Shown piece after piece: positions 43,987-64,000 of a stretch of DNA of 64,000 bases. The position numbers were made by a program, and so were the translations under genes. The notes below the pieces were generated by a model, which searched no databases, had not been told where the DNA came from, and saw only the letters and a program-made list of their open reading frames with translations. The DNA comes from Gavia stellata (taxonomy: Eukaryota > Chordata > Aves > Gaviiformes > Gaviidae), in NCBI RefSeq assembly GCF_030936135.1, contig NC_082594.1:129618668-129682667 (forward strand). The letters run 5' to 3'. Numbering within the stretch: the stretch's first letter is position 1; every line of letters begins with the position of its first letter.

Positions 43987-44231
43987 TCAGTTTGCCAGTC
44001 TTCTGCCAACTCCAGGAGATAGCGGTCTTGGAGAATATTTGTCTGGAGCACTGAGTTCCTGTTGGAGAACTGAGACTAGCAAATGCAAACTTTCATCCAT
44101 CATCTGGAACTGCTGAAGGATGAACCGTCTTTCTTCTGACTGTAAAAAGGTACTGATCCAAGATTGCATAGAAAGCTGATTAGTTTTTGATTTATCCACA
44201 TTCATGCAAATGGATATGACTTTGTTAATCT
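43987..44231 (-). CDS. Predicted terminal exon of an unrecognised membrane protein
   Basis: A minus-strand exon opening after a pyrimidine-rich acceptor (TTTATAATTGGTATTTAG) and running 80 codons to TGA. Its first two bases (AG) complete a codon left by a phase-1 exon, giving Glu after the usual G, so it matches the phase of every exon upstream. The peptide starts INKVISICMNVDKSK, has a middle likely to be helical (SEERRFILQQFQMMDESL, LLVSVLQQEL), and ends in a Pro-rich RPLSPGVGRRLAN. I do not recognise the family. The helical stretch could mediate oligomerisation. An internal alternative acceptor (TTTTTACAG near 44150) exists. It could also be an unrelated chance frame, since only phase and acceptor tie it to the gene. 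Confidence 0.5.
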
Positions 44232-44424
44232 CTAAATACCAATTATAAAAAAGGCCTTAGCTCTTACATTTTGTGTTAGTAGAGCACTGTTTATTAAAAC
44301 CAGATACAAAACAATACAAAATATTTTGTTCATGATCCGGCCTATTTCTCTTCATGCAGTGACACTAGAAAAGGAGGCTGTCCCTTCTGAGAAAAGCAAA
44401 ATAGGCACTGGCAACAGCTCAGCT

Positions 44425-44573
44425 AGTCTTCAAAGCCTTCTTTATTGATGGCTTCAAGTGCTGATGGAAAACCTCCAAGAGAAAAGATAGCAGCTCCTTC
44501 ACCGTTGAATTCTACTGCTTCTCTTCCATTCTTCTTTGGTTGGCAAAGCAATTATTTGCTTATGATTTAAGAT
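44425..44573 (-). CDS. Candidate alternative 3'-terminal exon
   Basis: The acceptor TTTCTTTTTCTATTGCTTCAG on the minus strand is the best-looking one in this part. Read in the gene's phase it gives only Asp-Leu-Lys-Ser and a stop. It would then be mostly 3' UTR, with AATAAA at about 44439-44444 and again near 44286-44291. Another frame in the same stretch is open for about 40 codons (ending EAINKEGFED and TAG) but cannot be entered in phase from this acceptor. It is either an alternative short-tail end or a decayed exon. Confidence 0.3.
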
Positions 44574-45366
44574 CTGAAGCAATAGAAAAAGAAAAGCACA
44601 CAGGTAAATTATTGTGTCTTCTCTTCTAGAAATTGAACTAGTTCTACTTTAAACACTAATGAACTAGTTAGGCTTTAAACACTAATGAAGTGTGAAGATG
44701 AATTACGACATTGTCACATGATCCAAAACAATCCAATTACAGCAGCTAGACGACACGTGGTATCTGATAGCCACTAGCAGTTTTACCCAAATTATCTGTT
44801 TATGGTTAGACACGTTCTTCTGCAACTGGAGCAGGTTAAGAACATTTATCACTTACTGTCAGCTACCTGCTAAGCAGCTGGTAACCTGTGAGGCTGTTCT
44901 GACTCCATGACTTTGGATCACATAACTAGGCACTTAAGACACCAATTTTATGCAAAGGTTCAGGTCTATAATCTTAGCATCAGCTGTGCACCACACATGC
45001 ATGTGATGCTGCTGCTATTTCTTCCACACAGTAAGGCCAGGCGCTTTTGGAGCTTTCTTTTTTGAGGATTGCAAATAGAGCTCTGATTTGACAGGCAAGG
45101 AAACTGAAGGCAAAGGGAAGTTACAGTGCAGGAAGTTAGAATCCAGTAAATTCAAGACTACACGCCCAACCTAACTCACTGCATGCAACATGCATCAACC
45201 TCTAACCAGGCTGATTTCCAATAAAGCATACACAAGGCCCACTTACATCGGTGTTTCCATCTTGGTGCACACAAAGCAACAGTATAAGGGGAACCAACTG
45301 TACGTGCCAAGGCACTGTCATTCAGTCTTTGCTCCTATTTTGATAGCACTACCCTTCCCTTCCGCT

Positions 45367-45438
45367 AGTCTCTAGCTCACCATCACTCCAAGTCTCTAGC
45401 TCAGCATCACTCCAAGTCTCTAGCTCAGCATCACTCCA
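45367..45438. repeat. 24-bp tandem repeat, three units
   Basis: Three head-to-tail copies of AGTCTCTAGCTCAGCATCAC plus TCCA. The first differs at one base. It looks like a young minisatellite and may vary in copy number. Confidence 0.9.
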
Positions 45439-45683
45439 ACCTGGGATAAGATGCCAAGAGACAGTCTAGGAGAGCAGCATATGGTGACACATGGCACTCA
45501 CCTCTGTAGACAATGACAAAAAGAAAGATGTCCCTAGTCTGGTTCTCACAAGGTTCCTGAAGAGGCCTGAAGTATTTTTATTATTTGTATCCTTATAATC
45601 CAAGCAGGTTTACTGCTTTACCTACAGCTGACTTATGCCAGCTTGGTGACAAGACTAAAAGGACATGATCGAGAAGCCAGCCT

Positions 45684-45717
45684 GGGGTGGGGGGGGGGGG
45701 GGGGTGGGGGGCAGGGG
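45684..45717 (+). repeat. Poly-G tract, potential G-quadruplex
   Basis: The tract reads G4, T, G16, T, G6, CA, G4. Four or more G-runs within 34 bases meet the usual G-quadruplex pattern on the plus strand, which is the non-template strand's complement for the minus-strand gene. Length is prone to sequencing error. Confidence 0.85.
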
Positions 45718-61652: not shown

Positions 61653-61944
61653 CTTTAAAAAAATAAAATAAATAATGTTTGGTTAGTTAAAAAGCAACTA
61701 TGTGACACACTACTTCAGTAGAAATATAAACCTGAGTATGTTTTATAGCTATTTGGTTTTTAAAAAAAGTAACCCCAAAAACTTAATGCACCAGAGTCAG
61801 TTATTAGCAAAACCCTAAGCCTGCTCCAGGAAAGTTACATGGTTAAGTACCTTAGTTCAGTGATGGCACATCACCTCTTGAAAGGCGATAGTTATTCCAT
61901 TTTTCGGCCTATGAAAGGGCCAAATGAAATTTCAGCAAATATCC
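61653..61944. other. Intronic stretch, nothing recognised
   Basis: AT-rich sequence upstream of the transmembrane exon, reaching the LTR. It includes the acceptor tract of that exon. Confidence 0.45.
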
Positions 61945-62662
61945 TGTATTGGGTTTGCATGGCAAGATTTTGGTAGCGGGAAGGCTGCAGGGGTGGCTTC
62001 TGTGAGAAGATGCCAGAAGCTGCCCCCGTGTCAGGGGAGCCAGTTCCAGCCAGCTCCAAGATGGACCCACCGCTGGCCAAAGCTGAGCCCATCGCCAACG
62101 GCTGGTAGCACCTCTGTGATAACATATTTAAGAAAGGGTAAAAACTGCACCCCATGGAACCGACCCATGCTGGAGCAGTTTGTGAAGAACTGTAGCCCAT
62201 GGGAAGGACCCACGTTGGAGAAGTTTGCAGAGGACTGTCTCCTGTGGGTGGGAGCCCACGCTGGTTCAGGGGAACAGTGTGAGGAGGAAGGAGTGGCAGA
62301 GACAACGCATAATGAGCTGACCACAACCCCCATTCCCTGTTCCCCTGCGCTGCTCGCAGGGAGGAGATAGAGAAATCAGGAGTGAAGTTGAGCCTGAGAA
62401 GAAGGGAGAGGTGGGGGGAAGGTGTTTTAGATTTGGTTTTATTTCTCATTATCCCACCCTGATTTTGATTGGCAATAAATTAAATTAATTTTCCCCAAGT
62501 CAAGTCCGTTCTGCCTGTGACAGTAATTGGCGAGTGATCTCCCTGTCCTTATTTCAATCCATGAGGCTTTTGTCATATTTTCTCCCACCTGTCCCATGAG
62601 GAGGGGGAGTAAGAGAGCAGCTTGACGGGCATCTGGCAGCCAGCCAAGGTCAACCCACCACA
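61945..62662 (+). mobile_element. Solo ERV LTR, 718 bp, opposite orientation
   Basis: It runs TGTATTGGGTTTGCATGGCA to GGTCAACCCACCACA on the plus strand, the same family as 57758-58827 but inverted and about 350 bp shorter, because most of the internal minisatellite is missing. A TATA-like ATATTTAAG lies near 62127 and AATAAA near 62475. The flanks (TATCC and TGCCT) do not form a clear target duplication. On the minus strand a 185-codon frame is spurious. Confidence 0.85.
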
Positions 62663-63423
62663 TGCCTCATCTCTAACAAGTCTGTAACACATAATTCCAG
62701 TGAAGGAGGAAGAATTCTATACTGGTAAACCATGAAAATTACTTTTGCACAGAAGTGGGAAATTTTGTCAGTTAGGGACTGCCTTACACACCCTACAAAC
62801 CAAATGGTTCCAAACATGTTCTCATCCTATGTTTTTAAAAATAAAGAAAAAAAAAAAAAAGAAAAAAAGCAAGCCTCAGGCTGACCTGAAGCTCAGCTGA
62901 AGCTGTCCCAAAGCAATAAGCAACAGCAGGAAAACTCTCTTTTCTCCTTTTTATATCTCTCTGAAGGAGGAAAAGAAGTACGCTCACCAACTCATACACA
63001 TGCTAGATTACAAATTATTTATCTAACTGCTGCTAGATGACTCACTTGAAATGACTGAATAGTTTCATTCCAGTTCATGGAAAGCAGTACAAAGAGCACA
63101 ATAGTCATTAGCGTTAATTACACAAGGCCAGAAGGTTTAGAAGAGATCTAAGTGTGTCTCCCTTTTTATTATTACTCATTTCAAGTCACAGCTGAAGGTT
63201 TTATTCTGTTGAGATCCCTGCAAAAAGTATCTTTCTGGGGGGATCAAACTGTCAGCCTCATACCTTTCATGAACCTTAAACACACTTTTAGCAGACAAAT
63301 CACTTCTGATGCTTTTTACTCTTTAAATTCAACTTCCTCAGAAGTCAGTAGAAATTATACAGTTAAAGTCCATGCTGCTTTCGAACATAGCCTCTCAGAC
63401 TTGCGTATACAACCTGACCCATT
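62663..63423. other. Intronic stretch with poly-A run
   Basis: An A-rich tract lies at about 62838-62867. A splice-like span at about 63263-63304 is open in phase but lacks a pyrimidine tract. Nothing else was recognised. Confidence 0.4.
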
Positions 63424-63866
63424 CACAGAGTCACAGAATGATAGGGGTTGGAAGGGACCTCTGGAGATCATCTAGTCCAACCCCCTGCCAGAGTAGGGTC
63501 ACCTGGAGCAGGTTGCACAGAAGTGTGTCCAGGTGAGTTTTGAATATCTCCAGAGAAGGAGATTCCACAATCTCTCTGGGCAGCTTGTTCCAGTGCTCTG
63601 CCACCCTCGAAGTAAAGAAGTTCCTCCTGATGTTTAGATGGAACTTCCTATGACCAAGTTTGTGCCCGTTGCCTCTTGTCCTGTCACTGGGCACCACTGA
63701 AAAAAGACTGGCCCCATCCTCCTGGCACCCACCCCTGAAGTATTTATAAGCATTAATAAGATCCCCCCTCAGTCTTCTCTTCTCCAGACTAAAAAGACCC
63801 AAGTTCCCCAGCCTTTCCTCATAAGAAAGATGTTCTAGTCCCCTAATCATCTTCGAAGCCCTTTGC
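63424..63866 (-). mobile_element. CR1: CR1 LINE, 3' fragment next to a splice donor
   Basis: A younger CR1 subfamily on the minus strand. The terminal repeat is CACAGAGTCACAGAATGATA and the 3' UTR phrase is GGGTTGGAAGGGACCTCTGG. Its C-terminal frame of about 140 codons is intact (LSYEERLGNLGLFSLEKRRL, LPREIVESPSLEIFKTHLD). The 5' truncation lies near 63866, only about ten bases into the intron from the donor of the 63877 exon. Confidence 0.95.
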
Positions 63867-63876
63867 TTTTCATTAC

Positions 63877-64000
63877 CTTGTTTATCTGGAAAGCACTGAG
63901 TCAAAGAGATTTCAGAGCTCTTTTCTGTTTGAGAGAATTTAATGAAACATGCAGCTTTCTCGGAAGCATCAACATTCTCCTTAGGGATGAAAACTTCCTG
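63877..64000 (-). CDS. Predicted exon cut by the window edge
   Basis: The minus strand is open for 41 codons from the edge to the donor ACAAG, GTAATG, ending in phase 1 like the exons downstream. The peptide (KENVDASEKAACFIKFSQTE, then KSSEISLTQCFPDKQ) is hydrophilic with two Cys 18 residues apart. Placed just before the transmembrane exon it would be the membrane-proximal extracellular part. I do not recognise the domain. The start of the exon and all earlier exons lie outside the window. The CR1 next to it begins about ten bases past the donor. Confidence 0.52.

What the first reader, a model, noticed from the sequence alone, without database searches (positions are those of the whole stretch)
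43987..64000. Unrecognised minus-strand membrane-protein gene with a modular tail
At least six minus-strand spans have good splice sites, are open in one shared phase (1-1) and fit one product: extracellular stem, single transmembrane helix, charged cytoplasmic tail from repeated small exons, and a terminal exon rich in predicted helix. I cannot match any part to a known family. A receptor-like protein with a tail built from duplicated 69-72 bp exons would be unusual.
Basis: partly seen in the sequence, partly recalled or inferred. Interest (0 to 1): 0.8.

Follow-up and report, generated by a model that had tools for sequence, protein, structure and literature searches.

The report
Bird CD58 gene with cassette-exon tail
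The minus-strand gene is the bird version of the known immune adhesion protein CD58 (LFA-3), whose inner tail is coded by small repeated exons, several of them damaged in this species, so it is a known gene and not a new family.

Summary
The joined peptide's best match is a stork LFA-3 (E=1.7e-75). Exons 64000-63877, 61652-61557, M1, M4 and a different last exon reproduce exactly the end of a CD58 protein that the database lists as encoded by this window. Its ectodomain matches solved human CD58; the gene lies tail-to-tail with an ATP1A1-type gene. Six of seven spans are CD58 exons. The seventh (to 43987) lies beyond the poly-A signals and has no relative; the true last exon starts at 44573. 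The "stem" is the end of an Ig domain. M1, M2 and M3 are tandem duplicates; all tail exons are phase 1-1. Here the tail is decaying: ancestral exon A is split by an LTR-like insert and has a stop, exon B lacks an in-phase donor, exon C was not found, M3 has a GC donor, and M2 joined to M4 gives a stop. Long bird CD58 tails are in print (PMC5990624, passages); eight searches of one library did not turn up the duplicated cassettes. What the tail does remains inference.

The parts
63877..64000 (-). 3' part of the second Ig-domain (C2-type) exon of CD58; the exon continues to about 64138 beyond the window
   Evidence: exact end of P0004 when joined; flank search
61557..61652 (-). transmembrane exon, 96 bp, phase 1-1
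   Evidence: in P0004, skipped in P0033
58828..58848 (-). 5' piece of relic tail exon A (RTQLGT), before the insert
   Evidence: position and order only; score 26 is below the best of 100 shuffled queries, 41; sequence
57758..58827 (-). LTR-like insert, 1070 bp, TG...CA ends, flanked by AACAG / AAAAG
57714..57752 (-). 3' piece of relic tail exon A (GRAA*KNSPVHGS) with in-frame TAG, then gtagga
   Evidence: score 68 against at most 41 for 100 shuffled queries
57444..57500 (-). relic tail exon B (GERQLLCSVDSQEQPKSDR), open, but TTAAG stands where an in-phase donor GT is needed
   Evidence: score 88 against at most 38 for 100 shuffled queries
53148..53219 (-). tail exon M1, 72 bp
   Evidence: in P0004 and P0033
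50476..50544 (-). tail exon M2, 69 bp; last base T, so that M2 joined to M4 gives TAA
   Evidence: 22 of 23 residues as in Ciconia P0001
50235..50303 (-). tail exon M3, 69 bp; GC donor
   Evidence: 20 of 22 residues as in Ciconia P0001
49878..49946 (-). tail exon M4, 69 bp
   Evidence: in P0004 and P0033
44559..44573 (-). coding part of the true last exon (DLKS, stop TAA)
   Evidence: completes P0004 and P0033 exactly
44290..44295 (-). AATAAA, likely poly-A signal (another at 44446)

Best explanation
This is the 3' part of the bird CD58 (LFA-3) gene. The protein has two Ig domains (in mammals CD58 is the ligand of CD2), one transmembrane helix and a cytoplasmic tail coded by small phase 1-1 exons. 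Shown here: identity of the gene, exon positions, shared phase, duplication of M1-M3, and the state of each tail exon in this genome. Inferred: because the tail exons and the transmembrane exon share one phase, splicing can include or skip each without a frame shift, giving tails of different length and some forms without a membrane anchor; in this species the usable tail is mainly M1+M4+DLKS (51 residues; 13 D/E, 7 K/R, no tyrosine). Not shown: what the tail does. Most likely it tunes the surface level or placement of CD58 on the presenting cell and does not signal through SLAM-type tyrosine motifs.
For: 90 hits, 79 of them named LFA-3, LFA3 or Cd58, best E=1.7e-75. Exact match of the joined exons to the ends of P0004 and P0033. 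P0004 against the PDB: human CD58 1ccz 50.7 bits and 1ci5 49 bits, CD48 19.6. Leader and Ig exons found in the flank, in order. Na,K-ATPase alpha motifs on the plus strand ending in EKETYY-stop 7.9 kb left of the window; the same tail-to-tail order in human is recalled. Modules in one order in 99 of 101 proteins that hold any. 0 of 27 tails with ITIM, ITSM or PxxP.
Against: For the whole chain a carcinoembryonic antigen entry scores higher (96.2 bits) than CD58, through several Ig domains, best single stretch 33.8. 9 of the 90 hits bear other names or none of use, such as SLAM family member 5-like or CEACAM1-like. The retrieved proteins are mostly automatic predictions. The contig behind P0004 is given as 133,328,454 bases, that of the window as 133,319,487, so P0004 may come from another version or haplotype. 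No transcript, binding or structure test was possible here (structure prediction switched off).
Confidence: 0.93

Rival explanations
1. One reading: an unrecognised receptor family whose tail ends in the helical exon 44135-43987.
For: Six of the seven spans are real exons, and the last one has an acceptor-like site in the right phase. The 3' half alone has no PDB hit and only a sub-threshold Pfam hit.
Against: Named relatives in many birds; the exact DLKS ending; poly-A motifs upstream of the proposed exon; no relative of that exon among 170 proteins.
Confidence: 0.02
2. M2 and M3 are still used in this species, M3 through a GC-AG intron, giving a longer tail as in storks.
For: Both are open and close to stork proteins (22 of 23 and 20 of 22 residues); M1-M2-M3-M4-DLKS and M1-M3-M4-DLKS read through in frame. 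GC-AG introns exist (recalled).
Against: Both listed proteins of this window skip M2 and M3; the bases after the GC fit a donor poorly; M2 joined to M4 gives a stop.
Confidence: 0.25
3. The tail exons have little function anywhere: neutral, phase-matched exons that come and go without cost, so that gain and loss only reflect weak constraint.
For: 45 different module strings among 101 proteins; loss of several exons here; ducks with a different short tail and mammals with 12 residues.
Against: Where present, modules keep 51-69% mean pairwise identity over 32 hand-picked species, close to the Ig domains at 64-67%, and keep their phase; this suggests constraint but was not tested on DNA.
Confidence: 0.3

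Closest known systems
CD58 / LFA-3 of birds (for example Ciconia boyciana P0001)
   Same: Two Ig domains, transmembrane exon, tail modules M1-M4 and DLKS ending
   Different: In this genome exons A and B are broken, C was not found, and M2 and M3 are not in the listed proteins
Human CD58 (1ccz, 1ci5)
   Same: Ectodomain similarity; neighbour of ATP1A1, tail-to-tail (here; human order recalled)
   Different: Human tail has 12 residues and there is a GPI-anchored form (PMC8218816, passages)
CD2/SLAM family members with tyrosine motifs
   Same: Related Ig ectodomain; weaker PDB matches to CD48 and SLAM family member 5
   Different: No ITSM or ITIM in 27 of 27 CD58 tails
chB6 / Bu-1 of chicken
   Same: Bird protein with CD2/SLAM-type Ig domains and a tail without clear mammalian counterpart, next to CD2 on chicken chromosome 1 (PMC11882424, abstract and passages)
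   Different: chB6 has a CCC palmitoylation motif and an SH3-binding PPMP motif; PxxP in 0 of 27 CD58 tails

Membership tests
CD58 / LFA-3 | Two Ig domains followed by one transmembrane helix | tested here: met
   Pfam Ig domains in P0004; exons in the flank and window
CD58 / LFA-3 | Closest to CD58 in sequence among CD2/SLAM members | tested here: met
   1ccz 50.7 and 1ci5 49 bits against CD48 19.6 and SLAM family member 5 12.2; only PDB chains compared, no tree made
CD58 / LFA-3 | Genome neighbourhood (ATP1A1 side) | tested here: met
   Na,K-ATPase alpha motifs, recalled, on the plus strand left of the window; human order recalled; IGSF3 side not tested
CD58 / LFA-3 | Binding of CD2 | not testable with these tools
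   needs a binding assay
CD58 / LFA-3 | Short 12-residue tail or GPI anchor (human) | tested here: not met
   51-residue tail in the listed form; not a defining feature outside mammals, since longer tails are reported for fish, reptiles and birds (PMC5990624, passages)
SLAM receptors | Tyrosine switch motif (TxYxxV/I) in the tail | tested here: not met
   0 of 27 bird tails
chB6 / Bu-1 | Proline-rich SH3-binding site in the tail | tested here: not met
   PxxP in 0 of 27 bird tails

The most novel reading that the evidence does not exclude
Bird CD58 has a cytoplasmic tail that grew by tandem duplication of one 69-72 bp phase 1-1 exon and is spliced combinatorially, so that lineages differ in their sets of tail forms, with soluble forms when the transmembrane cassette is skipped; in the window's species this cassette system is being dismantled by an LTR insertion and splice-site changes. 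The tail would be a fast-evolving regulator of CD58 on the presenting cell, for example through an acidic dileucine-like pattern in M3 (20 of 40 M3 copies; absent here).
Probability: 0.35. Interest if true: 0.45.

Novelty: new member of a known kind. Interest (0 to 1): 0.22.

Why it matters
It removes a supposed new receptor family and gives the correct gene, last exon and exon state. The open point is that CD58, with a 12-residue tail in human, has in birds a tail built from duplicated, phase-matched cassettes that differ between lineages. If transcripts confirm it, CD58 on bird presenting cells could be regulated from the inside in ways that mammals lack.

Tried and rejected
Considered and dropped: an MHC B-G or butyrophilin-like tail (first thought, dropped); a new family (on the 3' half alone, gave one sub-threshold Pfam hit to a domain of unknown function and no PDB hit); the terminal exon at 44135-43987; exon C of relatives, sought between 61556 and 53220 and not above shuffled queries. 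ATP1A1 motifs were not in the window but were found left of it (one further isolated DEVRK on the minus strand at -53125 is taken as chance). Rfam: no match at the gathering threshold. The third protein search listed 120 of 260 proteins, all of those listed being bird proteins or unnamed, so I cannot say whether crocodiles, turtles or chicken share the tail. No DNA of related birds was within reach, so dN/dS was not computed. The first module count used too loose a threshold for the last-exon module and placed spurious copies inside the Ig domains; those were not used, and the count was redone without that module.
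Full report
What is there. The large protein search returned 90 proteins at E up to 10. By my count 79 of them are named LFA-3, LFA3 or Cd58, 9 bear other names (SLAM family member 5-like, pregnancy-specific glycoprotein, CEACAM1-like, uncharacterised, Ig-domain), and 2 have no name. The best is Ciconia boyciana LFA-3, E=1.7e-75, 70% identity over 78% of the query. The two unnamed ones, P0004 (299 residues) and P0033 (267), are marked as the tool marks proteins that the window itself encodes.

Gene model. Joining 64000-63877, 61652-61557, 53219-53148 (M1), 49946-49878 (M4) and 44573-44559 reproduces the end of P0004 letter for letter; leaving out 61652-61557 reproduces the end of P0033. 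So the last exon codes DLKS-stop from 44573, with AATAAA at 44446 and 44295. Its 49 residues score 34 at best against 170 retrieved proteins, inside the range of 20 shuffled queries (28-52), while M1 to M4 score 103-115. A filter for acceptor plus open frame of that length passes 189 plus-strand and 129 minus-strand places, overlapping ones included.

Rest of the gene and neighbours. The window is G000:C1:129618668-129682667. In 200 kb of flanks P0004 places the leader exon at 78606-78514, the first Ig exon at about 65115-64792 and the second at about 64138-63877, in window numbering. Left of the window, Na,K-ATPase alpha motifs (recalled) run on the plus strand to EKETYY-stop at -7901, tail-to-tail with CD58, as I recall for ATP1A1 and CD58 in human. 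The M4 stretch has one match in the genome under the search used. The contig length given for P0004 (133,328,454) differs a little from that of the window's contig (133,319,487), so P0004 may stem from another version or haplotype.

Is it CD58? P0004 against the PDB: human CD58 1ccz 50.7 bits and 1ci5 49 bits, one stretch each; CD48 19.6 and SLAM family member 5 12.2; carcinoembryonic antigen 96.2 bits for the whole sequence through several Ig domains, best stretch 33.8. Pfam finds Ig domains as the only family above its cut-off.

The tail. M1, M2 and M3 are related: 43 of 72, 44 of 72 and 46 of 69 aligned positions identical, 0 of 500 shuffles reaching the score in each pair. The similarity runs into the introns, about 32 nt upstream and 19 nt downstream for M1/M2 and up to 78 nt upstream for M2/M3. 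M4 is not related by this test (57, 218 and 223 of 500 shuffles reach the score against M1, M2 and M3). So part of the tail grew by tandem duplication of an exon together with its acceptor. Of 170 retrieved proteins, 101 hold at least one of seven modules (A, B, C, 1-4) at my thresholds, in 45 different strings; 99 of the 101 keep the order A-B-C-1-2-3-4, and the two exceptions, both Calidris pugnax, have repeated blocks. Rhea (P0108) and Struthio (P0114) repeat a two-module block, and the ducks and geese in the alignment have a shorter, different tail. Most of these proteins are automatic predictions and some are partial, so the number of strings is not a count of proven isoforms. Within one species different sets occur, for example Calonectris borealis P0006 and P0007, and Aptenodytes patagonicus P0011 and P0014. 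Among 66 proteins with a module and a recognisable stem motif, 11 have no hydrophobic segment, as expected if the 96-bp phase 1-1 transmembrane exon can be skipped.

Decay in this genome. Exon A of relatives is present in two pieces, 58848-58828 and 57752-57714, with a 1070-bp LTR-like stretch between them (58827-57758, TG...CA ends, flanks AACAG/AAAAG with one mismatch), and the 3' piece has an in-frame TAG. The 3' piece is well above shuffled queries (68 against at most 41); the 5' piece alone is not (26) and rests on position and order. A related copy lies at 61945-62662 in the other orientation. Exon B (57500-57444) is open and clear (88 against at most 38) but has TTAAG where an in-phase GT is needed; using the GT one base earlier breaks the frame. 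Exon C was not found. M2 ends in T, so M2-M4 gives TAA, while M2-M3-M4 and M1-M3-M4 stay open; M3 has a GC donor. That relatives have GT there is inferred from their protein forms, since no DNA of relatives was seen. Both listed proteins skip M2 and M3. The C-terminal extension after DLKS in some birds (P0008, P0092) meets a stop here, as in the storks P0001 and P0002.

How it likely works. In mammals CD58 is the CD2 ligand on presenting and target cells, with a 12-residue tail or a GPI anchor (PMC8218816, passages). From 32 hand-picked bird proteins, 27 tails could be cut out: ITIM, ITSM and PxxP are in 0 of 27, any tyrosine in 11, YxxPhi in 3, an acidic dileucine pattern in 10. Counting M3 copies alone with a slightly wider pattern that also allows LM, 20 of 40 have it; in the window M3 has W at the acidic position. 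Mean pairwise identity is 51-69% for the modules and 64-67% for the Ig domains in the same 32, each module being present in 14 to 25 of them. A sorting or anchoring role is thus the likeliest, but it is inference, and neutral turnover is a real rival.

Known or new. The gene is known. PMC5990624 (passages) states that CD58 tails are longer in zebrafish, reptiles and birds than in human, naming Struthio (121 residues longer), Taeniopygia (112) and Parus (56). I found no description of the duplicated cassette exons in the listings of eight searches of one open-access library and the passages seen of three papers; subscription papers, such as the one on the chicken SLAM family cited in PMC11882424, were not seen.

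Noticed in passing
window 57758-58827 (-) and 61945-62662 (other orientation): Two related LTR-like stretches (75-83% identity in the aligned parts), one inside relic exon A and one in the intron before the transmembrane exon.
   Followed up: partly
window 35532-36695 (-): 387-codon open frame that reads like a CR1-type reverse transcriptase (family name recalled).
   Followed up: no
window 40601-41029 (+) and 52161-52640 (-): Nearly the same open-frame peptide (HLLGRQHSNSSSQEDAW...) occurs twice in opposite orientation, probably pieces of one repeat family.
   Followed up: no
window about 46420-46705 (-): Short stretch bounded by inverted CAGTGGTCTCCAAA-like ends (seen), perhaps a hAT-type miniature element (recalled).
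   Followed up: no
window 44359-44487 (+): The end of an Aptenodytes forsteri predicted protein (P0020) matches the strand antisense to the CD58 last exon at 77% identity; a prediction artefact or an inverted piece.
   Followed up: no
P0108 (Rhea pennata) and P0114 (Struthio camelus), tails: A two-module block is repeated with identical copies: either a separate recent duplication in these birds or a duplicated prediction.
   Followed up: no
G000:C1, about 20.6 to 7.9 kb left of the window: Na,K-ATPase alpha-type exons on the plus strand (motifs recalled), the tail-to-tail neighbour of CD58.
   Followed up: partly
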